Positions 46,810 to 64,000 of a stretch of DNA of 64,000 nucleotides are shown piece after piece. The notes below the pieces were generated by a model that saw only the letters and a list, made by a program, of their open reading frames with translations, searched no databases and was not told the origin of the DNA. Positions within the stretch are counted from its first letter, which is position 1. Every line of letters starts with the position of its first letter. This stretch comes from Pelosinus propionicus DSM 13327. Lineage in GTDB: Bacteria; Bacillota; Negativicutes; DSM-13327. A program made the position numbers and the translations under genes. The stretch covers positions 1 through 64,000 of the forward strand of contig NZ_FOTS01000009.1 in assembly GCF_900114615.1 (NCBI RefSeq). The letters are read 5' to 3'.

Positions 46810-48228
46810 TTATCTCTCTCTCAAAGATTCGCTTTGGTATTTTTTAAAGGGTTCTAAGAAAAATTCATAGATTTGCTTTTGCTGGGTTTTAATTTCAGCG
46901 TTAACCGTCATACCACTATTAAGACGTGTCTCCTGATTATTCACTACTACATAGTCTTTGTCCATTTGCAAAAGAACTCGATATACATTGCCTTTTTCTC
47001 GGTCTTCTACTGCATTCGGGCTAATCGTAGTGACGATTGCAGGCACCGTTCCGTATTTTTGAAAATTAAAGGATTCAATCTTAATCTCAGCAGACTGTCC
47101 TTGTCGTATAAAGCCAATATCTTTATTCGCCACCCACGCCTCAACTTCTAAGCTGACTTTATCAGGCACTACCTCTAGCAGTACTTGGGCTGGTGTTACT
47201 ATACCTCCAATCGTATGCACTGCTAAATTGCTTACATATCCATCATCTGGAGCAACGATAGTTGCTAAACGATTCTTTTCTTCTGCCTTTTTCAATGTTT
47301 CCCTGAGATAGAACAGTTTTTGTCTTGCCTCAACCAGTTTTGTATCAAGATCCACATTTTTTTCTGCTATAACCCGTGCTAACGATGCCTGACTTTTCGC
47401 TAACAAGGATTCTTGTGCTTTGATTATGGATTCTTGCTCTGTTAAATTTTGTTCCATTTCTTCACGTTTACTTTGCTGATCGATCAAAGTGAGTTTTGAT
47501 ATCGCATTCTCATTTACTAATTGCTCTAATTTGCCCTCTTTTTCTTCGGCAAGCTGATGCAACTTTGTTAGTTTCTTCTTCTCTGTTTGAGCACTTTGCA
47601 AATTTTGCTGATATTGCTCCATTGTATGCCGAGCCTCTTCAATTCTTGTCTGATATTCAAATTTTCGACTATTATAAAGATTGATCTGCGCTTGTATATC
47701 TTTGTCATCTGCTTGGGGTATCGTGTGCGGCAGAAAGGCTCGATTTTCTTTTTCGGCTGTCAAGCGTTCTACTTCAAGACTGGCGTTAATCGCTTCTCTT
47801 CTCACTTTCGCTAAATCATCTGCAGAATATGTAGTATCTAACTCTAACAACAAGTCACCTTTTTGGACTTTTTGTCCATCTACTACATAAATCTTTTTAA
47901 TGATCCCCTTATCTTCCGCTTGAAGTACTCGAACATAGCCATTAGGGATGATTTTTCCTGGCGCTATCGCGACTTCATCTACACTGCCAAATGTCACCCA
48001 CAGCAATCCAATAATTGCTAGTATGAAAAATGTCCATAATACAGTTCGACTGCCATAAGATGGCGGCGATTCAACAATTTCCAATGCTGCAGGTAAAAAT
48101 TCAGCTTCTTTACTTTGAAATTTTTCGATGTTCTTAATTTTTACTCTTTCATAAAATTCCTTTATCTTTTCCAAAATCGTCTGTAAGTCTTCATGATTCT
48201 TTATAAAACCAAACATTTTATTAAACAT
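46810..48228 (-). CDS. HlyD-family membrane fusion protein
   Basis: 472 residues. One N-terminal membrane helix (LWTFFILAIIGLLWVTFGS), then VAIAPGKIIPNGYVRVLQAE and a lipoyl-like VVDGQKVQKGDLLLELDTTY, then a long coiled coil rich in Gln/Glu/Lys with LAEEKEGKLEQLVNENAIS, and a C-terminal beta-domain. Its start overlaps the preceding ABC gene by 8 bases. With a TolC-type channel it would span the periplasm. A TolC gene is not in the window. Confidence 0.92.
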   Translation of the reverse strand: MFNKMFGFIKNHEDLQTILEKIKEFYERVKIKNIEKFQSKEAEFLPAALEIVESPPSYGSRTVLWTFFILAIIGLLWVTFGSVDEVAIAPGKIIPNGYVRVLQAEDKGIIKKIYVVDGQKVQKGDLLLELDTTYSADDLAKVRREAINASLEVERLTAEKENRAFLPHTIPQADDKDIQAQINLYNSRKFEYQTRIEEARHTMEQYQQNLQSAQTEKKKLTKLHQLAEEKEGKLEQLVNENAISKLTLIDQQSKREEMEQNLTEQESIIKAQESLLAKSQASLARVIAEKNVDLDTKLVEARQKLFYLRETLKKAEEKNRLATIVAPDDGYVSNLAVHTIGGIVTPAQVLLEVVPDKVSLEVEAWVANKDIGFIRQGQSAEIKIESFNFQKYGTVPAIVTTISPNAVEDREKGNVYRVLLQMDKDYVVVNNQETRLNSGMTVNAEIKTQQKQIYEFFLEPFKKYQSESLRER

Positions 48229-50374
48229 GGCTGTCTCCTTGCTGTTGATAGAGATTATAATACACGCCTCTGTTTTCTACGAGCTGTACATGTGTCCCGT
48301 GCTCTATAATTTGACCACGCTCCATAACAATGATTGCATCACACTCTTTCACATTCGCCAAACGATGAGCAACGATGATCATCGTACGTCCATCTGCAAT
48401 TTGCTTTAAATTCCCCATGATAATCCGCTCCGACTGATAATCTAAGGAACTGGTAGCTTCATCAAATATTACAATCTTTGGATTGGAAATTAGCGCTCGA
48501 GCAATTGCAATTCTCTGGCGCTGTCCACCGGATAATGCAGTCCCTCGTTCTCCTACAATCGTGTCATATCCTTCAGGGAGTTCAAGAATAAAATCGTGAG
48601 CACCTGCCAGTTTAGCAACCCGATTAATCTCTTCCATGTTTACCCCTTGACGGGCAAGAGCGATATTATCCCTGACACTGCCATTGAACAGGTAGTTATC
48701 CTGCAGCACTACACCTATTTGTTGTCTTAACCAAGCCGGATCAGCTTGCGTTATATCTACGCCATCAATCAAAACCCGCCCCGCTTCTGGAATATATAAT
48801 CGCTGAATAATTTTGGTTAGGGTACTTTTCCCCGAGCCCGATCGTCCTACGATACCGATCTTCATACCTGGTCTTATGTGCAGATTGATTTTTCGGAGTA
48901 CTTCATCATTCTCAATGTAATATCTAAAGGTTATATTTTCAAGTTTTATTTCGCCTTTGATTTCTGATAATCGAATTGCATCTGGCAAACTGGTTGGCTC
49001 TGGTGCTGCATTTAATATATCTCCAATTCTTGTTACAGCGAGCTTTGTCTGCTGAAAAGATTGCCACATGCCTACTAAACGTAATAAAGGTGCACCAGCC
49101 TGATTCGCCATCATTTGAAATGCAATAAACTGACCAATTGTTACCGCTCCATCAATTACCATAAATCCGCCAAACCAGATAAGCAAGTATGCAATCAGTT
49201 TTTGTGTAAGGCTCCCCCCGTTATTTAACACAACGCTGAACTGCGCCTTATCTAAATTAGTACTAACGCTTTTAGATAACAATCTCTCCCATTTAAAATT
49301 AAATTGCGGCTCCACTGCTAAAGACTTTACAGTATGAATGCCCGTTATCGCTTCAACAACAAAAGCATTATTCTCTGCGCTGGCATTCCAAGAATCTTGC
49401 AGCCTTTTTTGATACATTGGCGTTCCTATTATATTGATTGCGAATTGAATGGGTATAGCAGCAATAGCGATTAAAGTCAACGGTGCACTATAATAAAACA
49501 TTACAGCAAAAAATATCATAGAAAAACCTAAGTCAATCAATACCGTCACAGCGGTACCAGTTAAAAATTCGCGAATATTATTTAAAGCAGACACTCTCAT
49601 TAGAGTATCTCCTACTCGTCTCTTTTCAAAGAATTGTATAGGTAGATGCATTAAAAGACGAAACATTCTAGTACCTAAAATTACATCAATTTTATTTGTG
49701 GTATGGGTAAATAGATACGTCCTTATCAGGTTCATTATCGTCTGAAAAAGAACGACAAACACCATACCCATGACAAGTATATTTAACGTAACTGTTCCAT
49801 GATTAATGATTACTTTGTCAATGATCACCTGTGTACATAACGGTATTACTAGTCCAAATAATTGAAAAAAGAATGCAGCTCCCAAAATTTCTATGAAGTA
49901 GCGCTTATAGCGGACTATAACAGGTATAAACCAAATTAAATTAAATTGTCTACTGATGTCTTTTAAATTAAAGGAGCGCTTACATATAATTGCTTGCCCC
50001 GTCCAACCAAGAAGAAATTCTTCTAAAGGCATCACAATGGAGTGTCCATGCCTTGGTGAGTACAGTGCTATTTTCTTTGCATTATTTTCCCCAATTACTA
50101 TATAATCGCCGTTATTCATCTTCGCAATTGCAGGAGACTGAATAGCAGAAAACCCTCTTTTCCCTAATTTTACTACTTTTGCTTTTAAATCAATCTTTTT
50201 TGCAGCTTTTATTAAGTCCTTTGGATCAGAGAGATCGTCACTAATCCCATATTCTTTTGTTAATTTTTCTTCGTCAATTGGCATTCCGAAGCCTTTTGCT
50301 ATCACAGCTAAACAAATTTTCCCGGTGTTAATGTATGTTAATGGTTCTTTTTCCATGCTTATTTTTTCTTCCAT
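48221..50374 (-). CDS. HlyB-type ABC transporter with inactive C39-like domain (copy 2)
   Basis: 717 residues from ATG 50374 (AAAGGAG upstream at 6 bases; an earlier in-frame start at 50398 lacks one). It is a paralogue of the gene at 44629, with the same Walker A (GIVGRSGSGKSTLTKI), ALSGGQRQRIAIARA and IVIFDEATSSLD. The C39 Cys site reads NTGKICL, Cys replaced by Thr, so this copy is also not a peptidase. First gene of the operon. Two such exporters in one operon could form a heterodimer or serve different substrates. Confidence 0.9.
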   Translation of the reverse strand: MEEKISMEKEPLTYINTGKICLAVIAKGFGMPIDEEKLTKEYGISDDLSDPKDLIKAAKKIDLKAKVVKLGKRGFSAIQSPAIAKMNNGDYIVIGENNAKKIALYSPRHGHSIVMPLEEFLLGWTGQAIICKRSFNLKDISRQFNLIWFIPVIVRYKRYFIEILGAAFFFQLFGLVIPLCTQVIIDKVIINHGTVTLNILVMGMVFVVLFQTIMNLIRTYLFTHTTNKIDVILGTRMFRLLMHLPIQFFEKRRVGDTLMRVSALNNIREFLTGTAVTVLIDLGFSMIFFAVMFYYSAPLTLIAIAAIPIQFAINIIGTPMYQKRLQDSWNASAENNAFVVEAITGIHTVKSLAVEPQFNFKWERLLSKSVSTNLDKAQFSVVLNNGGSLTQKLIAYLLIWFGGFMVIDGAVTIGQFIAFQMMANQAGAPLLRLVGMWQSFQQTKLAVTRIGDILNAAPEPTSLPDAIRLSEIKGEIKLENITFRYYIENDEVLRKINLHIRPGMKIGIVGRSGSGKSTLTKIIQRLYIPEAGRVLIDGVDITQADPAWLRQQIGVVLQDNYLFNGSVRDNIALARQGVNMEEINRVAKLAGAHDFILELPEGYDTIVGERGTALSGGQRQRIAIARALISNPKIVIFDEATSSLDYQSERIIMGNLKQIADGRTMIIVAHRLANVKECDAIIVMERGQIIEHGTHVQLVENRGVYYNLYQQQGDSHV

Positions 50375-50731
50375 CGCTGCTCCTTTCTTTGGAATCAAAA
50401 CATCTCTTATTTCCAGTTTTATAACATCACTATATACGTATAGATTTTGTCACATATTCAGTATCCTGGCAAGACTTTAAAGCAACAAGAGGACTAAAGT
50501 AACACTTTTTGTATAACAAAAAAATTGCTACTCTCAGTACATTCTGAAAGGCAGCAATCTATTTTAAAGACAATATGATGCTTAATAACGGAAGTTCGTC
50601 AATCATAAGCTTGTCATAAATCTGTCATATTTTTCTTATATTATAACAACAGAACACCAAAATTGGAAAAATCTAAGAATCATAACGAATAATTGTCAAT
50701 TATAAAACAAATCTATTGAAGAGGTGACAAC
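50375..50731. other. Divergent region upstream of the secretion operon and the Imm74-like gene
   Basis: 357 bases. TATACGTATA (50433-50442) is a perfect short palindrome near the secretion-operon start. An imperfect hairpin (ATTGCT ... AGCAAT near 50525-50560) is seen. The plus ribosome binding site GAAGAGGTGACAAC precedes ATG 50732. No gene is supported within. Confidence 0.45.
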
Positions 50732-50983: not shown

Positions 50984-51628
50984 TTAATCCTTCTTGTTAT
51001 TTGTCCTAAAAACCTCTCCTTCAGATATATCCATTTGGTTTTCCCTGCGTTCATCATTTCGGTAAAATATATTGCTTTGATCAGACTCTGCCATATCTCC
51101 TTTGATACAGCCATCCAATTGGATATTTCGGTAAGGACTATCCCAGCCCCCAGATGAAATTTCTTCAATTTTTGTTACAATTTTATTATCTATATCAGTA
51201 ATAACTTTCTCCACACTTTTCATTTCTGGTGATACATATTTATAATATAGATCAGTGACGACTTTCACTATCGATCCAATTACACTTCCACGTTCAAACC
51301 AGCTTTGAACATTGCCAATTTCACGAGTATCACAGATTTCTTCTATTGAATTATTTGCAAAATAACGATTCACATTTCCTAAATAGACAGCTCCTCCTGC
51401 AATCCCCCCCCTAGTCTCAGTATGAATATCTAATATACTCCCAACTGATTCTATAGCAATTTCGCTTCCTAAAACTGCCTTGTAATTACCGCTAGGCTTC
51501 TCTACTCCAAATCCACCATTAGAACTATTATTTAAGAGCTCTAATCCAAAACCGCCACTAAAGCTTGTATTCGAATTATCTGCTCCAAAGCTTCTATTAG
51601 AATCTTTTTCAGAACTATCATGACTCAT
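50984..51628 (-). CDS. Gly/Asn-rich hypothetical protein, candidate type I secretion substrate
   Basis: 214 residues, GGAGGTAAGAATAT before ATG 51628. The N-terminal 45 residues are polar and Gly-rich with two related units, FSGGFGLELLNNSS and NGGFGVEKPSG. The middle has HTETRGGIAGGAVYLGNVNR; the C-terminus is polar with EISSGGWDSPYRNIQLDGCI. There is no signal peptide and no GGxGxD RTX repeats. It lies beside an Imm74-like gene and a HlyB/HlyD operon. It is a candidate exported effector; the effector activity is not recognisable. Repeat copy C lies about 65 bases upstream in a promoter position. Confidence 0.6.
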   Translation of the reverse strand: MSHDSSEKDSNRSFGADNSNTSFSGGFGLELLNNSSNGGFGVEKPSGNYKAVLGSEIAIESVGSILDIHTETRGGIAGGAVYLGNVNRYFANNSIEEICDTREIGNVQSWFERGSVIGSIVKVVTDLYYKYVSPEMKSVEKVITDIDNKIVTKIEEISSGGWDSPYRNIQLDGCIKGDMAESDQSNIFYRNDERRENQMDISEGEVFRTNNKKD

Positions 51629-56437: not shown

Positions 56438-57421
56438 CTATGAGATTGATTTAGTACGCTCCTTTCTAGAAACAACGATTCTTTGCAGTACAATAAATAG
56501 ACAGAGTAAAAATGCAACAGCAATTTTGGTCCACCAAGAACTTAATGTTCCTTGAAACATGATTAGAGTTTGAATGACCCCTTGTATCAAAACCCCGAAA
56601 ACTGTTCCTGTGATAAATCCAACACCGCCTGTTAAAGGTGTTCCACCAATTACAGCAGATGCAATCGCATCCATTTCTAATCCCATAGCATGCAGTCCAT
56701 AACCCGAAAGCATATAAAAACTAAACACAACCCCTGACAGTGCGGAACAAAATCCACTTAGACCATATACTAACACTTTTGTCCTGCCAACCGGAAGTCC
56801 CATCAGCATTGCTGATTGAGCATTGCCGCCGATCGCATATACTGCACGTCCGAATTTAGTATAATTGTTAAGATATAATGCTGCTGCTACTAATGCAAGA
56901 GCAATCATAACGCTAATTGAAATATAATTGTCAAAAGGTAGTGGTATTCGGTAGGTTGCTATAAATTGATAAAAGGAATTGGTAATCATTATGGTATCAA
57001 TGCTGATTACATAGCATAGTCCTCTAGCTAAAAACATACCTGCAAGAGTTACAATAAATGGCTGTATCGTAAAGAAATGAATAAAGCTACCTTGCACAAT
57101 CCCAAATAAAAATCCCATAAGCAGCATTAATGGTATAACAATCAATGCACTAAGGTGCTGTATTTCCAGCAAATATGCGGAAAGCATACATACTAATGCA
57201 ATTACAGACCCTACTGAAATATCAATTCCGCCAATAATAAGTACAAAGGTCATACCGATTGCAGTAATAATTAGAAAGGCATTATCAATAAGCATGTTGA
57301 GCAGCACTTGTGTGGAAAAAAATCCATTATACAATACAGAGCCCGCAGCAAATAAAGCAAAAAACAATACAACCGTAATTATTAGATTAATATACTTATA
57401 ACTTAGCTGCATTTTTTTCAC
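56438..57421 (-). CDS. yjfF: Sugar ABC permease, YjfF-like
   Basis: 327 residues from GTG 57421, 7 bases after AGGGGG; longer in-frame starts lie inside ytfT. ITAIGMTFVLIIGGIDISVG then SVIALVCMLSAYLLEI is the conserved BPD_transp_2 loop. GTPLTGGVGFITGTVFGVLI marks the C-terminal part. It overlaps the preceding permease gene by 26 bases. With YtfT it forms the transmembrane part of a galactofuranose-type importer. Confidence 0.88.
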   Translation of the reverse strand: MKKMQLSYKYINLIITVVLFFALFAAGSVLYNGFFSTQVLLNMLIDNAFLIITAIGMTFVLIIGGIDISVGSVIALVCMLSAYLLEIQHLSALIVIPLMLLMGFLFGIVQGSFIHFFTIQPFIVTLAGMFLARGLCYVISIDTIMITNSFYQFIATYRIPLPFDNYISISVMIALALVAAALYLNNYTKFGRAVYAIGGNAQSAMLMGLPVGRTKVLVYGLSGFCSALSGVVFSFYMLSGYGLHAMGLEMDAIASAVIGGTPLTGGVGFITGTVFGVLIQGVIQTLIMFQGTLSSWWTKIAVAFLLCLFIVLQRIVVSRKERTKSIS

Positions 57422-58475
57422 TTGGAATCCCCCTCTTTTGAGCCCATTTAGAAAATACAATTTTTCGAAATTTAGCAGATTGCAGTAAGCAGATAATAAT
57501 GACAACAATGGATTTGACCACTAGTGTAATCTCTGGAGGTACTCCTAAGGCATAAATTGTCGTTGTAATACTTTGAATCACTAGAGCTCCAATCAAACTT
57601 CCTACCAAGGAAAATCGACCACCATCAAGAGAATTCCCACCAAGTGAGACTGCTAAAATGGCATCTAGCTCGATAAATAACCCCGCATTATTTCCATCCG
57701 CTGAACTTACATTGGAGCAGATAATAAGTCCTGCCAAGCCAGCACACAATCCAGAGAAGGCATAGACAGAAAAGATATATTTACTCACTTTGATTCCTGC
57801 AAACCTACTAGCAACAGCGTTAATTCCGATTGATTCAATAAACATACCTAAAGCTGTCTTTCGTACTGCATAAAAGGTAATGCCGAAAACCAGCCCTACA
57901 ACAAAGAGGGAAAAAGGCAAACCCAATATATATCCAGTGCCAATAAATTGAAAGGGTTTATAATATACTGTAATAATTTGTCCTTGCGTAATCAGCTGAG
58001 CGATTCCTCGACCAGCAACCAGTAGAATCAGCGTGGCAACAATCGGCTGAATTCCCACTTTAGAAATTAATAATCCATTCCACATTCCTAAAAGAGTGGT
58101 AACCAAAAGTGCAGTAATGATGGCAACAGGCATGGGAACAAGTGTAATGAGTGTTTTAACGCCATCTACGTATTCTAATTTTCCACCAATTAGGGAAGCT
58201 ACTACCGCTCCAGAAATAGCAATCATCGATCCTACAGATATATCAATTCCTTTTGTAGCAATGACCAAGGTCATACCAATGGCCAGCAACATTAAAGGTG
58301 CGGCACGATTTAAAATGTCAATGGTAACCCCGTAGAAATGTCCATCTTTCATTTCAATCATAAAAAAATCCTTCGTAAAAAAGAAATTGAAAAGTAAGAC
58401 AAAAAATAATGCTGCTAGAGGCCAACAGAGTCTAGAACTTGTAAATCGATTCCAATTAGACTGTATTTTCTCCAT
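57396..58475 (-). CDS. ytfT: Sugar ABC permease, YtfT-like
   Basis: 359 residues from ATG 58475, just after AGGGGTGTAGAAGG; longer starts would overlap the ATPase gene. LLAIGMTLVIATKGIDISVG then SMIAISGAVVASLI is the family loop; GGNSLDGGRFSLVGSLIGAL is in the C-terminal part. Its start is 5 bases after the ytfR stop. YtfT-type permease. Confidence 0.88.
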   Translation of the reverse strand: MEKIQSNWNRFTSSRLCWPLAALFFVLLFNFFFTKDFFMIEMKDGHFYGVTIDILNRAAPLMLLAIGMTLVIATKGIDISVGSMIAISGAVVASLIGGKLEYVDGVKTLITLVPMPVAIITALLVTTLLGMWNGLLISKVGIQPIVATLILLVAGRGIAQLITQGQIITVYYKPFQFIGTGYILGLPFSLFVVGLVFGITFYAVRKTALGMFIESIGINAVASRFAGIKVSKYIFSVYAFSGLCAGLAGLIICSNVSSADGNNAGLFIELDAILAVSLGGNSLDGGRFSLVGSLIGALVIQSITTTIYALGVPPEITLVVKSIVVIIICLLQSAKFRKIVFSKWAQKRGIPSEKNAAKL

Positions 58476-58479
58476 CCTT

Positions 58480-59997
58480 CTACACCCCTGCAATCGTCTG
58501 CATAATATATTTTTCTTCCATTTCTTCACCTGAAATCTCTGCTATCTTTACTCTATCTCTTAAAACTGCCATACGACTGGAGCATCGAACCGATTCATCC
58601 AGTTCTGAAGATATAAATACAACGGACATGCCGGTTTCTGCCAGAGACAGTATTAATTTTTGAATCTCAACTTTAGCACCTACATCAATCCCACGTGTAG
58701 GCTCATCCAGTATTAAAAGCTTAGGTTCTGTCAGCAGCCATCTGGCTAATATTACTTTTTGCTGATTTCCTCCGCTTAAATTTTTGATTAGTTGTTCGGG
58801 TCCAGCAGTCTTAATATTTAGTAATGCAATATATTTTTTTGAAATCTCATCCTGTCTTTTTTTCGTTATGTGTTTCATCCACCCTAACTTGGCTTGTAAT
58901 GCCAAAATAATGTTTTCTCTTACAGAAAGATTTTCGATAATCCCTTCCGTTTTTCTATTTTCAGAACAATACGCCAGGCCATATTGAATTGCATCAGCGG
59001 GGCTTTGTATGGCAACAGTTTGTCCTTCAATGACGATTTCTCCGCTATCGGCTTTATCAATACCAAAAATAGTACGGGCAACTTCTGTTCGACCAGATCC
59101 TAATAAACCTACAAGACCAAGCACTTCACCTTTACATATATCTAGGTCAAAGGGATGAATCGAACCTTTGTGACCAAGACCACGCACCTGCAAAAAATTA
59201 TTACGCCGTTCTTGAAGAATATCCAGTTTTAGTGTCTTGCAGCTACTTTCAAATCCATCAAACGCTTTGCCAATCATTTTTGCAATCAACTGAACACGGG
59301 GCAGATTTACAGTCTCATAGGAACCAACCAATTCACCATTACGTAATATGGTAATCTTATCGGAAACGTCATAAACTTGCTCAATAAAATGAGTTACAAA
59401 AATAATTCCTAAACCTTGCTTTTTTAACTTACGCATAAGTCCAAACAGTTTTTCAACTTCTTGAGCATCCAAACTCGAAGTCGGTTCATCCAATATTAAC
59501 ACTTTAGCCGATATGTCAAGTGCTCTTGCAATCGCTACCATTTGCTGTATTGCAACAGAGTAACGCTCTAAAGGCTGGGTAACATCAATCCCAAGGCTCA
59601 AGCGCGCCAATAGCTCCTGCGATTTGCGATTCATTTCCTTCCAATCAATACTGCCAAAGCGCAATGGCTCTCTGCCTATAAAAATATTTTCGGCAACTGA
59701 TAAATTGGCACAAAGATTAACCTCTTGATAAACTGTACTAATTCCTAGCTGCTGGGCATGATGAGGCGACTTGGGCGCAATGGCTTTACCGTCTAAAAAG
59801 ATATCTCCAGCATCAAGAGGATCAACACCTGTCAACACTTTAATCAAAGTCGATTTTCCAGCTCCATTTTCTCCCATTAAACAGTGAATTTCTCCAGGTT
59901 TTAGTTCAAAATCTACATTGTTGAGAGCTTTAACCCCAGGAAATGCTTTACAAATCCCCTTTGCCTTTAATAAAGAATTTGCATCATCCATTGTCAT
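58480..59997 (-). CDS. ytfR: Sugar ABC ATPase with two ATP-binding domains, YtfR-like
   Basis: 505 residues. Domain 1 has MGENGAGKSTLIKVLTGVDP (Walker A) and ISAKVLILDEPTSSLD. Domain 2 has GLLGSGRTEVARTIFGID (a degenerate Walker A, usual for RbsA/YtfR-type) and NLSGGNQQKVILARWL, ILDEPTRGIDVGAKVEI. It powers import. Start by GGAGGTGAA upstream of ATG 59997. Between ytfQ and this gene is a strong hairpin. Confidence 0.9.
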   Translation of the reverse strand: MTMDDANSLLKAKGICKAFPGVKALNNVDFELKPGEIHCLMGENGAGKSTLIKVLTGVDPLDAGDIFLDGKAIAPKSPHHAQQLGISTVYQEVNLCANLSVAENIFIGREPLRFGSIDWKEMNRKSQELLARLSLGIDVTQPLERYSVAIQQMVAIARALDISAKVLILDEPTSSLDAQEVEKLFGLMRKLKKQGLGIIFVTHFIEQVYDVSDKITILRNGELVGSYETVNLPRVQLIAKMIGKAFDGFESSCKTLKLDILQERRNNFLQVRGLGHKGSIHPFDLDICKGEVLGLVGLLGSGRTEVARTIFGIDKADSGEIVIEGQTVAIQSPADAIQYGLAYCSENRKTEGIIENLSVRENIILALQAKLGWMKHITKKRQDEISKKYIALLNIKTAGPEQLIKNLSGGNQQKVILARWLLTEPKLLILDEPTRGIDVGAKVEIQKLILSLAETGMSVVFISSELDESVRCSSRMAVLRDRVKIAEISGEEMEEKYIMQTIAGV

Positions 59998-60130: not shown

Positions 60131-61138
60131 TTAGTATTTACGATTTGGTAATTCTTTGGAAGCCACTTCTGCAGGGAACACACCTTCTTTTGTGACAATG
60201 CGTTTGTCAAGGGTCTTACCTGCCACCAAGTCTTTTGTAGCTGTCATCAATTGATCGCCGAGCAGTGGGCTGCATTCAATCGTTGCATTTAATTTTCCTG
60301 CAATCATAGCCTCAAATGCACCTTTAACTCCGTCAATCGAAACAATGATAATATCTTTGCCTGGTTTTAGTCCAGCTTCTTCAATTGCTTGAATCGCACC
60401 AATTGCCATATCATCATTATGGGCATATAATACATCAATTTTTTGTCCATCAGCTTTGGCTGATTTTAGGAATGATTCCATCACTTCTTTACCTTTGGCA
60501 CGTGTAAAATCACCAGTTTGCGATTTAATGACTTTATAGTTGGCGTGTTGTTTTAAGATTTCTTCAAAACCAGCTTTACGATCAATCGCAGGAGCAGAGC
60601 CAACGGTTCCTTGCAATTCAACAATATTTACAGCCTCATTATCTTTTTTCATGAAATCAACTAGCCATTTACCAGCTCGTCTGCCTTCTTCCACAAAATC
60701 GGAGCCCATAAAGGTAACATAATAATCTTCTGCATTGCCACTGCTCATTTTAATGGACCGATCTGTTAAGATTACAGGTATTTTAGCAGCCTTTGCTTCT
60801 TGCAGTACTGCATCCCAGCCTGTTTCTACAACAGGAGAAAAAGCAATTACATCCACTTTTTGCTGTATAAATGACCGTATGGCTTTTATTTGATTTTCTT
60901 GTTTTTGCTGGGCATCCGAAAACTTAAGTTCAATACCAGCCGCTTGTGCAGATGCTTTTATGGATTCGGTATTTGCTGTGCGCCATTCACTTTCTGCACC
61001 GATTTGGGAGAATCCCAGAACGATTTTTTTGTCTGCCGGCTTAGTTGTTGTTTCCTGCTTAGCTCCTGAACAGCCTGCCAGAGCTAACATCATAATTCCG
61101 ACACTCAAGGCAATCGTAACCTTTTTCCACTTTGCCAT
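60131..61138 (-). CDS. ytfQ: Sugar-binding lipoprotein, YtfQ-like
   Basis: 335 residues. The signal peptide ends LALAGCSG (lipobox with Cys at about 23). The start of the mature part, KKIVLGFSQIGAESEWRTAN, then DVIAFSPVVETGWDAVLQEA and YYVTFMGSDFVEEGRRAGKW, is diagnostic of YtfQ, the galactofuranose-binding protein. It delivers the sugar to YtfT/YjfF/YtfR. A paralogue with the same sequence style forms the second half of the fusion gene upstream. Confidence 0.92.
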   Translation of the reverse strand: MAKWKKVTIALSVGIMMLALAGCSGAKQETTTKPADKKIVLGFSQIGAESEWRTANTESIKASAQAAGIELKFSDAQQKQENQIKAIRSFIQQKVDVIAFSPVVETGWDAVLQEAKAAKIPVILTDRSIKMSSGNAEDYYVTFMGSDFVEEGRRAGKWLVDFMKKDNEAVNIVELQGTVGSAPAIDRKAGFEEILKQHANYKVIKSQTGDFTRAKGKEVMESFLKSAKADGQKIDVLYAHNDDMAIGAIQAIEEAGLKPGKDIIIVSIDGVKGAFEAMIAGKLNATIECSPLLGDQLMTATKDLVAGKTLDKRIVTKEGVFPAEVASKELPNRKY

Positions 61139-61357
61139 GTTTCTTACCCTCCTTATTTTTTAGAACCAGTAGTGCTAGTTCATGCGTCACCTAAAAGCAA
61201 TGGTAAATTTGCATTCTTTTTTCGCCTCGCTGATCGAAAGAATATTTGCACACTTATCCAATGTTTTATATGACCAATGTACTGGTTTTATTATAAGGCG
61301 GCAGCGTTTGTTCGTATTTAGAATAATCAGTAATTTCTTATATTTTTCCGCACTGTT
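61139..61357. other. Promoter region of the ytf-type operon
   Basis: 219 bases with no gene and no clear operator. It must hold the promoter and the ribosome binding site of ytfQ (AGGAGGGTAAGAA). Confidence 0.5.
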
Positions 61358-63223
61358 TTAGTACCTGCGATGCAGATAGTCTTGCCTTGCCGTTTCTGCA
61401 GAAAATACGCCTTCAGAAGTAATAATCCTCATTGGGAGCTGCCGCCCTGCCATCAAACTTTTTACCGCTTGCATAAGCTGGGGACCAAGAAGAGGATTAC
61501 ACTCCACAGTACTGTTTAACTTACCTGCCATCATCGCTTTAAAAGCCGCTGCTGTAGCATCAACAGAGACAATCAGAATATCCTTGCCCGGTCTAAGTCC
61601 AAATTCCTCAATCGCCTTAATGGCACCAAGAGCCATGTCATCATTATGAGCATAAACAACATGAATTTGATTGCCATATATGGCTAACGCAGCTTTCATG
61701 ATCTCCTGCCCGCCAGCCTCGGTAAAATCGCCAGATGCAGAATAAATCACTTGAAATTGAGGATAATTAGCAATAATTTCAGCAAATCCTTTTTTTCTAT
61801 CAATAGCCGGCGCCGAATCAATTGTTCCTTCCAATTCAATCACATTGACTGATTTTTTAGCTATTTTTTTTTCCACGAGCCATCGGGCAGCTCTGCGCCC
61901 TTCTTCAAGAAAATCGCTGCCAATAAAAGTAGCATATAGCGAATTATCATCAGGTTTAATTGCTCGATCCGATAAAAGAACAGGAATTCCTGCCATTTTA
62001 GCTTCTTCCAATACCTCATCCCAGCCTCCTTCTACAACAGGAGAAAAAGCAATCACATCCACCCCCTGGGTAATAAAAGATCGTATGGCGTGAATCTGCA
62101 TGTCTTGTTTTTGATCAGCCTCTAAAAAAATAAGCTCAATACCTGCCTCTAATGCTGCATTCTTTATGGATTGAGAATTTGCCCTGCGCCAATCGCTCTC
62201 CGCCCCAAGCTGAGAAAATCCCAATACAATTTTTTTGCTTCGATTTTCTTTTTTAGGTTCATTCCCTGCTTTCAAATATTCCAAGACATTGTAACGGGTA
62301 ATTTTATTGCTCCGAGGGATAATCTTCTTTGGTATTCCCTTCTCATGATTTAATATATCCACAGCATATAAAATAGCCTCTCGTCCACCTGTGAGACAAG
62401 TAAATGTCCCTTCCAATATACCTTTTTCTACCAATTGCAATCCCCCATTAGGACCCGAAAAACCGTCTACTCCAACAAACTGTATTCCATTAGCCCCATG
62501 CTTTTTTGCAGCTTTGTAAGCCCCCAGCGCCATATAGTCGCTATGAGCAAAAACAACGTCAATCTGGGGGTACTGCTGCAGCAGTTTTTCCATTTCATCT
62601 TCTGCTTTGTCTCTTTGCCAATCAGCAATTACAGTTGCAACAATTTTAATATTGTTATACTGTCCCAGGACTTCCCGAAATCCAGCACTTCTTTCTTTAA
62701 GAGAAGGTAATCCTGCTGGCCCCTGAATTTCTACTACATTCCCGCCATTATGCAATAGATCTGCGATGTATTTCCCTGCTTCTTTACCAAGAGATTTATT
62801 ATCAGGTCCGATATATAATGTGTACGCATATCCTTCAACTGCTCGATCCAATACAATGACTGGAATCTTTTTATAAGCCTTTGCTACAATTGGTGTCAGA
62901 TCCGCAGAATCATTGGGTGAAATAATTAATAAATCAATTCCCGCTTCCAGCAGTTCTTCTACATCTCGAATCTGCTTATCACTGTTTTGTACGGCATCTG
63001 TAAAAACGATTTTAACATCTGCATGTTTTAGTGCTTCTTCTTTGATTTCTTCATTCATAATCACTCTCCAAGGCTCAACTAAATTAGCCTGGGAAACACC
63101 AATTACAAACTTCACCTGATCGGAACTTGCTACTTGGCTTGATGGATGATAACACCCTGCCATCATTGTCATTGTAACCAAAAGAACAATCATACTCTGC
63201 TTGACTCTAAACACCCAATTCAC
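61358..63223 (-). CDS. Tandem two-domain sugar-binding lipoprotein
   Basis: 621 residues from GTG 63223. The signal peptide is followed by the lipobox MMAGC. Domain 1 (about 37-325) is a Peripla_BP_4-type protein beginning VKFVIGVSQANLVEPWRVIM. Domain 2 (about 337-621) is a YtfQ-type protein beginning KIVLGFSQLGAESDWRRANS and sharing DVIAFSPVVEGGWDEVLEEA with YtfQ. Two binding domains on one lipid anchor are unusual. It overlaps the regulator gene by four bases (TGA/GTGA), so it is coupled to it and likely acts in sensing rather than transport. No permease gene is fused. Confidence 0.85.
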   Translation of the reverse strand: MNWVFRVKQSMIVLLVTMTMMAGCYHPSSQVASSDQVKFVIGVSQANLVEPWRVIMNEEIKEEALKHADVKIVFTDAVQNSDKQIRDVEELLEAGIDLLIISPNDSADLTPIVAKAYKKIPVIVLDRAVEGYAYTLYIGPDNKSLGKEAGKYIADLLHNGGNVVEIQGPAGLPSLKERSAGFREVLGQYNNIKIVATVIADWQRDKAEDEMEKLLQQYPQIDVVFAHSDYMALGAYKAAKKHGANGIQFVGVDGFSGPNGGLQLVEKGILEGTFTCLTGGREAILYAVDILNHEKGIPKKIIPRSNKITRYNVLEYLKAGNEPKKENRSKKIVLGFSQLGAESDWRRANSQSIKNAALEAGIELIFLEADQKQDMQIHAIRSFITQGVDVIAFSPVVEGGWDEVLEEAKMAGIPVLLSDRAIKPDDNSLYATFIGSDFLEEGRRAARWLVEKKIAKKSVNVIELEGTIDSAPAIDRKKGFAEIIANYPQFQVIYSASGDFTEAGGQEIMKAALAIYGNQIHVVYAHNDDMALGAIKAIEEFGLRPGKDILIVSVDATAAAFKAMMAGKLNSTVECNPLLGPQLMQAVKSLMAGRQLPMRIITSEGVFSAETARQDYLHRRY

Positions 63224-64000
63224 CGCCAGTTGCCTTTTTTACGATATTCTGCCGGAGATAATCCCACGACTTTCTTAAAGGTATTACTGAAATAATGTTG
63301 ATTACTGTATCCTACTCTTTCTGCCACTTCATACAGTTTAATCGTAGGATCCCCCATCATTTGAATGGCTTTTTCGATTCTCACCTGCGTTAAATACTCG
63401 ACGAAAGAAACACCAATTTCATTTTTTAATAAACGGCTTAGATACGTAGGACTAATCTTAATCATTTCCGCTAGATTCTGAAGTGAAAAGTCTTCCTTGT
63501 AATAATTGGCTTCTATGTGCTTCTGGGAAAGAAGTACAGCGGGAGTATAACTAACCTTACGGTTTAGCTCTAAGGTTAATTCATGATAAACGGCGGAAAC
63601 ACTACTTAGTAAATCCATTAATGGTTGTTGAGCGACAATTACGACTTGCTCTAAATTCTGCTCAATAACCTGCTGTAAAGAAGCACTAAGTTCATACCAA
63701 TCACTTGGATTAAGAATGGGTGTTATCGCAATCAGCTGATCCGCGCTATCATGAAAAATGATATAAGGCTGCCATTTCTCTAATAAATCTTTACAAATAT
63801 TTTCTATGGAAAACACCAGCAATTCTCGATCCCAATCTTTGAGAAGCTGCCCACGGGTGTACTGTCCAGCCACTTTCAGAGCAATCATTCCGGATATTGG
63901 CGAAAAATCTAATTCTAAAAAGGAGAGCTGATCTCTAATGTATCCCTCACTTAATAGGCCAGTTACCCAATCCTTACAAAAAGCTTCTCTTAACAGCGGC
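63220..64000 (-). CDS. AraC/YesN-type regulator, N-terminus missing at window edge
   Basis: The frame is open from the stop at 63220 through ATG 63888 to the window end, so the true start is beyond 64000; about 259 residues are visible. The last 105 residues are an AraC DNA-binding domain: NYYKEDFSLQNLAEMIKISP, TYLSRLLKNEIGVSFVEYLT and VAERVGYSNQHYFSNTFKKV. The upstream part (KDWVTGLLSEGYIRDQLSFLE) is like the linker of YesN response regulators, whose receiver domain would be off the window. It overlaps the tandem binding-protein gene. Probably it controls the sugar-uptake genes downstream. Confidence 0.85.
   Translation of the reverse strand, partial: PLLREAFCKDWVTGLLSEGYIRDQLSFLELDFSPISGMIALKVAGQYTRGQLLKDWDRELLVFSIENICKDLLEKWQPYIIFHDSADQLIAITPILNPSDWYELSASLQQVIEQNLEQVVIVAQQPLMDLLSSVSAVYHELTLELNRKVSYTPAVLLSQKHIEANYYKEDFSLQNLAEMIKISPTYLSRLLKNEIGVSFVEYLTQVRIEKAIQMMGDPTIKLYEVAERVGYSNQHYFSNTFKKVVGLSPAEYRKKGNWR

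What the first reader, a model, noticed from the sequence alone, without database searches (positions are those of the whole stretch)
61358..64000. Two-domain binding lipoprotein coupled to a YesN-type regulator upstream of a YtfQ-type transporter
The protein has two full periplasmic binding domains in tandem, the second being a YtfQ paralogue. It overlaps a response-regulator-like AraC gene. Domain duplication plus genetic coupling suggests a sensor that reads the same sugar that YtfQ carries, perhaps with a histidine kinase just off the window.
Basis: partly seen in the sequence, partly recalled or inferred. Interest (0 to 1): 0.62.

Follow-up and report, generated by a model that had tools for sequence, protein, structure and literature searches.

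The report
Tandem sugar-sensing lipoprotein controlling ytfQ transporter
A Pelosinus-like bacterium carries a membrane-tethered protein made of two different sugar-binding modules that, together with a sensor kinase and a DNA-binding regulator, very probably detects free L-arabinofuranose and switches on the matching transporter, an unusual two-module version of a known kind of bacterial sugar sensor.

Summary
On the contig the minus-strand order is histidine kinase (YesM type, dCache-HAMP) > response regulator (YesN type, intact receiver) > tandem binding lipoprotein > ytfQ-ytfR-ytfT-yjfF, beside an L-arabinose cluster. The two binding domains are not copies of each other. D1 is nearest to the fructose-sensor domain of BT1754. 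D2 is a GafA/YtfQ relative with its furanose pocket kept; it split from YtfQ once, long ago. The module is conserved across Negativicutes, Clostridia, Bacilli and Spirochaetes. D1 is constant; D2 accompanies only YtfQ-type transporters and was lost at least twice in Clostridium. A conserved regulator-type box, 18-19 nt from a -10 and without a -35, lies upstream of ytfQ. It is unique in this genome, recurs upstream of ytfQ, ytfR or the transporter ATPase gene in most HK/RR-bearing loci, and was not found in 15 ytf operons without them. Best reading: a three-component L-arabinofuranose sensor in which D2 binds the sugar, D1 touches the kinase, and the regulator activates ytfQRT-yjfF. New variant of a known kind (AraPST, CuaDSR, XylFII-LytS). 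Ligand, D1-kinase contact and activation remain untested.

The parts
61358..63223 (-). Tandem solute-binding lipoprotein, 621 aa: anchor 1-24, D1 about 38-322 (BT1754/RbsB-like), short linker about 320-330, D2 331-621 (GafA/YtfQ-like)
   Evidence: ORF, Pfam, PDB sequence hits, AF2 model and fold matches, alignment of 24 tandem proteins
63220..64000 (-). Response regulator of YesN type, 403 aa: receiver + AraC-type HTH; the gene continues beyond the window edge to contig position 64431. The YesM-type histidine kinase (587 aa) follows outside the window at contig 64447-66210 (contig C51 coordinates equal window coordinates)
   Evidence: Contig extension L003:3221-4432 (regulator) and L003:4448-6211 (kinase); Pfam Response_reg 4.8e-25, HTH_18 2.9e-22; dCache_1, HAMP, His_kinase, HATPase_c; catalytic motifs
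61286..61359 (-). Conserved promoter of ytfQ: A/T-rich two-part box TATAAGAAATTACTGATTATTCTAAATAC (second part 61314-61328), 18 nt gap, -10 TATAAT at 61290-61295; no -35 hexamer
   Evidence: Footprint in Negativicutes, model R1 unique in own genome at 64.7 bits versus 16.7 for the next, recurrence in other classes, no -35
60131..61138 (-). ytfQ (gafA): transport binding protein, 335 aa
   Evidence: NCBIfam NF041827 379 bits (below the 510 cut-off); PDB 6hbd, 5ocp, 2vk2
58480..59997 (-). ytfR (gafB): ABC transporter ATPase
   Evidence: NCBIfam NF041861 722 bits (below cut-off 850)
57396..58529 (-). ytfT (gafC): permease (true start probably downstream of the listed GTG)
   Evidence: NCBIfam NF041862 334 bits
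56438..57508 (-). yjfF (gafD): second permease
   Evidence: ORF; position after ytfT and homology to the yjfF slot in all related loci

Best explanation
A three-component furanose sensor. The tandem protein is tethered to the outside of the inner membrane. D2 (GafA/YtfQ-like) binds free L-arabinofuranose (possibly also D-galactofuranose). D1 (BT1754/RbsB-like) is the part that touches the dCache ectodomain of the YesM-type kinase and probably also binds a furanose in this organism. Ligand-driven closing is passed to the kinase, which phosphorylates the YesN-type regulator. The regulator binds the box upstream of ytfQ, takes the place of the missing -35, and activates ytfQ-ytfR-ytfT-yjfF. Shown here: gene order, domain identities, pocket and motif conservation, the box and its co-occurrence with the regulator. 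Inferred: ligand identity, D1-kinase contact, sign of the regulation.
For: Kinase, regulator and tandem protein form one tight gene string, 15 nt apart and then overlapping by 4 nt, and in most relatives the three genes stay together next to the ytf genes. D2 keeps the GafA pocket (W345, R346, D419, R420, R476, F500, N527, D555; exceptions W>F in the two Peribacillus and F>Y at the F500 position in three), while the segments matching YtfQ 74-86 and 207-225, nearly invariant in YtfQ, are relaxed: 29 of 89 YtfQ-conserved positions are not kept in D2. D1 is present in every kinase/regulator string found by the D1 scan; D2 is present only with YtfQ-type transporters. Where the transporter uses a D1-like binding protein (Paenibacillus, some Clostridia) the sensor is D1 alone. 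In the two genomes with single D1 plus ytf that were searched whole, no D2-like copy lies elsewhere. The R1 box is the only strong match in the own genome. Outside the loci used to build it, it lies mostly 20-57 nt upstream of ytfQ, or ytfR when that is a separate unit, or 51-74 nt upstream of the class B transporter ATPase gene. It has no match in 15 Selenomonad-type ytf operons without HK/RR. In L049 the split ytfQ and ytfR units each have one. Matches also precede giant GH43 enzymes in Paenibacillus and Ruminiclostridium, and the own locus adjoins araA, araB, araD and chvE-gguAB, both pointing to L-arabinose. Precedents with two SBPs, one for sensing and one for transport: CuaDSR and the systems listed in PMC10384115. 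GafA binds L-arabinofuranose (PMC10191376).
Against: No binding, phosphorylation, DNA-binding or expression data. The R1 box was not found in the Spirochaete loci, Cohnella or G665, so the link is not universal. GafA pockets look the same for L-arabinofuranose and D-galactofuranose, so the exact sugar cannot be read from sequence. The surface relaxed in D2 was not mapped on coordinates. Box-regulator binding rests on co-occurrence only. Both domains could in principle contact the kinase.
Confidence: 0.75

Rival explanations
1. Two-input gate: both pockets work and read different furanoses (D2 L-arabinofuranose; D1 another, for example fructofuranose- or ribofuranose-like), and the kinase integrates them.
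For: D1 pocket residues (N47, E50, W52, R53, D126, R127, R178, W202) are intact in Negativicutes, Clostridia and Spirochaetes. D1's nearest solved relative is a fructose sensor, 2x7x. D1-only sensors pair with transporters that use a D1-like binding protein.
Against: D126 is Gly in 12 of 43 fused D1s (at least 2 changes on the tree) and R53 is Gln in five Bacillaceae, so a working D1 pocket is not needed in those systems. In Pelosinus N228 is Ser. No gene for a second sugar was identified as a target of the box in this genome.
Confidence: 0.3
2. The tandem protein is a second transport binding protein that feeds YtfT/YjfF (as in transporters with several binding domains) and is only incidentally next to a regulator.
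For: D2 is a YtfQ relative with an intact pocket and lies directly upstream of the transporter genes in Negativicutes.
Against: A separate ytfQ exists in every whole genome checked. The tandem gene is joined to the regulator, not to the transporter, and the box and promoter sit between them. D2 has lost YtfQ-conserved positions in two segments. D1-only versions keep the kinase/regulator but not D2.
Confidence: 0.07
3. D1 alone is the sugar sensor and D2 is a modulator, for example a ligand sink or a domain that lets the sensor dock near the transporter and report transport.
For: D1 is constant, D2 was lost at least twice in Clostridium without loss of the regulator box.
Against: D2 pocket residues are kept in nearly all D2s, better than D1's; a non-sensing domain would not need them. 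D1's pocket decays only in proteins that have D2 (12/43 fused versus 0/13 single sensors; not phylogenetically independent).
Confidence: 0.15

Closest known systems
AraPST of Geobacillus stearothermophilus and the YesM-YesN + ChvE loci (for example AOT13_11420-11435 of Parageobacillus, PMC13068155)
   Same: SBP + YesM-type kinase + YesN-type regulator next to a CUT2 arabinose transporter. More distant kinase relatives found here (about 41%) show this order, SBP-HK-RR-chvE-gguA-gguB.
   Different: Single binding domain only 27-28% identical to D1; ChvE/GguAB transporter instead of YtfQRT-YjfF. The AraPST name and targets are partly from memory and from citations in PMC10384115.
CuaDSR of Ruminiclostridium cellulolyticum (PMC10384115)
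   Same: Lipoprotein SBP that binds the kinase ectodomain, YesN/AraC regulator, separate SBP for transport.
   Different: One binding domain, cellobiose ligand.
XylFII-LytS of Clostridium beijerinckii
   Same: Extra SBP dedicated to sensing a pentose with a histidine kinase (cited in PMC13068155, PMC10384115).
   Different: Single binding domain; D-xylose; kinase type recalled as LytS.
GafA/YtfQ furanose-binding proteins (2vk2, 5ocp, 6hbd/6hbm; PMC10191376)
   Same: Fold and pocket of D2.
   Different: D2 is fused behind D1, forms its own clade and has lost YtfQ-conserved positions.
BT1754 fructose-sensing domain (2x7x; PMC3404733)
   Same: Fold and closest sequence of D1 (about 39% identity).
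   Different: BT1754 is one hybrid kinase-regulator protein; D1 is on a separate tethered protein.
BvgS / CdgH tandem periplasmic domains (PMC8534201, PMC5431781)
   Same: Two binding-protein domains in tandem used for signalling.
   Different: There the domains are built into the transmembrane receptor and are of the PBPb type, not separate type-I sugar domains.

Membership tests
SBP-dependent three-component system (YesM/YesN type) | Histidine kinase with extracytoplasmic sensor domain, PF06580 and catalytic motifs | tested here: met
   dCache_1, HAMP, His_kinase, HATPase_c; PHFLYNTL etc.
SBP-dependent three-component system (YesM/YesN type) | Response regulator with receiver and AraC-type HTH | tested here: met
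SBP-dependent three-component system (YesM/YesN type) | Dedicated SBP gene linked to the kinase/regulator, with a second SBP for transport | tested here: met
SBP-dependent three-component system (YesM/YesN type) | Regulator controls the linked transporter | tested here: inconclusive
   Box conserved at transporter genes and co-occurring with HK/RR; no expression data
SBP-dependent three-component system (YesM/YesN type) | SBP binds the kinase ectodomain and ligand triggers signalling | not testable with these tools
   Needs binding or two-hybrid and reporter assays
GafA/YtfQ furanose-binding proteins (for D2) | Sugar-pocket residues (W, R, D-R, R, F, N, D) | tested here: met
   Kept across the 43 aligned D2s except conservative W>F in two Peribacillus and F>Y in three rows
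GafA/YtfQ furanose-binding proteins (for D2) | NCBIfam NF041827 equivalog cut-off (510 bits) | tested here: not met
   411 bits for the tandem protein as a whole; the local YtfQ itself reaches only 379
GafA/YtfQ furanose-binding proteins (for D2) | Lies within the YtfQ clade | tested here: not met
   D2 and YtfQ are separated by one branch, SH-aLRT 99: sister, not a transport YtfQ
BT1754-type fructose sensors (for D1) | Fold and sequence similarity to 2x7x | tested here: met
   203 bits, 5e-59; Z 32.0, rmsd 1.4 A over 283 residues
BT1754-type fructose sensors (for D1) | Fused to a hybrid two-component kinase | tested here: not met
   Separate tethered protein
BvgS/CdgH tandem-domain receptors | Tandem binding domains inside the transmembrane receptor | tested here: not met
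   Tandem protein carries no kinase or cyclase domain

The most novel reading that the evidence does not exclude
A two-pocket, two-ligand tethered receptor: D1 and D2 read two different furanoses (or the same sugar at two affinities) and jointly set one kinase, so the sensor is a chemical AND/OR gate that tracks free furanose released by arabinan-degrading enzymes, with Bacilli and Clostridium lineages having each discarded one of the two inputs.
Probability: 0.27. Interest if true: 0.6.

Novelty: new variant of a known kind. Interest (0 to 1): 0.45.

Why it matters
It gives a natural series (D1 only; D1+D2; D1 with D2 lost; D1 pocket decayed) in which one can test how a transport binding protein was recruited into signalling and which half talks to the kinase. 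It would also be a dedicated sensor for a furanose sugar form that exists only briefly after release from plant polymers, and it supplies a ready promoter box as the reporter.

Tried and rejected
Recent duplication of the local ytfQ into the sensor: rejected, D2s group apart from all YtfQs. D1 as a copy of D2: rejected, different branches, about 30% identity. Box as a general regulon site: rejected for this genome, one strong match only; 1-mismatch hits are at the control level and the one read lies in a coding region. Box upstream of the kinase operon or of chvE: none found. Literature search for a tandem SBP in a three-component system: none found in the open-licence library; subscription papers are not covered.

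Full report
Observation. The ORF at 61358-63223 (minus) encodes 621 residues with two complete Peripla_BP_4 domains. Its GTG start overlaps the stop of the regulator gene by four bases. The window is the first 64 kb of a 137 kb contig. Extending it shows that the regulator is a full YesN-type protein (receiver plus AraC-type HTH, 403 aa, contig 63220-64431) and that a YesM-type kinase (dCache-HAMP-His_kinase-HATPase_c, 587 aa, contig 64447-66210) precedes it by 15 bases. The catalytic motifs are intact. Further upstream lie a ROK regulator, gguB, gguA and chvE, a fucI-like isomerase, araA, araD, araB and galM (the ara and galM names rest on my reading of the translations and on homology between loci). 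Downstream is ytfQ-ytfR-ytfT-yjfF.

What the domains are. D1's best solved relative by sequence is 2x7x, the fructose-binding sensor domain of BT1754 (203 bits). D2's are the furanose-binding proteins 6hbd, 6hbm, 5ocp and 2vk2. An AlphaFold2 model of the tandem protein (24 own-locus sequences; pLDDT 89.7, pTM 0.84) agrees: D1 fits 2x7x at Z 32.0 and 1.4 A, D2 fits 2vk2 at Z 42.2 and 1.1 A and the L-arabinofuranose complex 6hbm at Z 41.3. D1 and D2 are therefore different sugar-binding branches, not a duplicated pair.

Distribution. The full-length tandem protein is present in all 8 searched genomes of the genus (two genomes of a sister genus have no match) and in at least 8 more genomes of the class, with a further one cut by a contig end. 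A scan of genome contigs with a D1 alignment found it in Pelosinus, Lucifera, Propionispora, Ruminiclostridium, Clostridium, Neobacillus, Peribacillus, Gracilibacillus, Lederbergia, Cohnella, Paenibacillus and Spirochaete assemblies. Three arrangements occur. A: kinase, regulator, tandem protein, with ytfQRT-yjfF. B: kinase, regulator, D1 alone, with another CUT2 transporter whose own binding protein is D1-like (42-47%) in Paenibacillus and Clostridia. C: regulator, D1 alone, ytfQRT-yjfF, kinase in some Clostridium. D1 was always there and D2 went only with YtfQ-type transporters; note that the scan itself used D1, so tandem-like systems without D1 would have been missed. More distant kinase relatives, found by searching with the kinase, have SBP-kinase-regulator-chvE-gguA-gguB in three of four genomes, the AraPST-like arrangement.

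History. In a tree of 43 D2 and 45 YtfQ sequences one branch separates the two sets (SH-aLRT 99), so D2 arose once and long ago. In the D1 tree the single D1s of arrangement C lie inside the fused clade, in two places, so D2 was lost at least twice in Clostridium, or lost once and regained, which is less likely. In the two arrangement-C genomes searched whole, the only YtfQ-type protein is YtfQ itself; every tandem genome checked has a separate ytfQ.

Pockets. Binding-site residues are reported as identical in the three solved GafA/YtfQ proteins, with Asp111 and Arg38 of the E. coli protein named (PMC10191376). The other pocket positions I used are assigned by homology to ribose-binding protein, from general knowledge. 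D2 keeps them in all clades apart from conservative aromatic swaps (W>F in two Peribacillus, F>Y in three rows). Of 89 positions at least 95% conserved in YtfQ, 29 are not kept in D2, and most of the strongly lost ones fall in the segments 74-86 and 207-225. I infer that these include permease contacts that a sensor no longer needs; this was not mapped on a structure. D1 keeps its pocket in Negativicutes, Clostridia and Spirochaetes and in all 13 single sensors, but the key Asp is Gly in 12 of 43 fused D1s (at least two changes on the tree) and Arg53 is Gln in five Bacillaceae. The counts are not phylogenetically independent.

Link to transcription. Aligning the leaders of ytfQ showed a box, TATAAGAAATTACTGATTATTCTAAATAC, followed after 18-19 bases by TATAAT, conserved across six family-level groups of Negativicutes. 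There is no -35 hexamer; the box occupies its place, as at activator-dependent promoters. A profile of it has a single strong match in the own genome, at ytfQ (64.7 bits, next 16.7). Searched over 75 loci, it lies mostly 20-57 bases upstream of ytfQ in loci of Clostridium and Bacilli that were not used to build it, upstream of ytfR where ytfQ is elsewhere, and 51-74 bases upstream of the transporter ATPase gene in three arrangement-B Paenibacillus. In L049, where ytfQ and ytfR are split, each has one. Fifteen Selenomonad-type ytf operons without the kinase and regulator have none. In Paenibacillus and Ruminiclostridium, matches also precede giant secreted GH43 proteins, which fits arabinan or arabinoxylan breakdown. 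No match was found in the Spirochaete loci, Cohnella or G665.

Mechanism. The most likely reading is a three-component sensor: tethered tandem protein, kinase, regulator, with D2 binding L-arabinofuranose, D1 contacting the kinase, and the phosphorylated regulator activating ytfQRT-yjfF. CuaDSR shows the same plan with one binding domain: CuaD binds the kinase ectodomain and a second SBP serves transport (PMC10384115). Ligand, contact and sign of regulation are inferred.

Novelty. Three-component SBP systems and tandem binding domains inside receptors (BvgS, CdgH) are both known. A separate, tethered protein with two unlike sugar domains, with this evolutionary series and promoter box, was not found in the open-licence literature searched. 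I therefore call it a new variant of a known kind.

Noticed in passing
window 61181-61287: The ytfQ leader of this genome carries an insertion of about 93-107 nt between the -10 and the ribosome-binding site that other Pelosinus lack; a related piece (82-91% identical, interrupted by about 48 nt) lies at G000:C72:136305-136462, so it looks like a small mobile repeat.
   Followed up: partly
L103:10920-17498 and L083:11130-18872: Giant ORFs (2193 and at least 2581 aa) with GH43, CBM and, in L103, S-layer domains follow the tandem gene, with a box match upstream.
   Followed up: partly
L119:8911 onward: A 539-aa Bacteroidales protein with a D1-like domain (42%) at residues 31-293 and an unexamined C-terminal part; possibly a fused sensor.
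   Followed up: no
L098:10013-14485: In Paenibacillus aceris a second YesN-YesM-SBP set (regulator, kinase, 359-aa binding protein) sits directly after the first, followed by what look like CUT1-type sugar transporter genes.
   Followed up: no
L003:11900-13402: A 500-aa fucI-like isomerase lies between araA and chvE in the arabinose cluster; a close relative (77%) sits after yjfF in L047, so it may act on the imported sugar.
   Followed up: no
window 50984-51628: A 214-aa low-complexity Ser/Asn/Gly-rich ORF beside an ABC exporter with an apparent peptidase-like N-terminal region (48221-50398); not studied.
   Followed up: no
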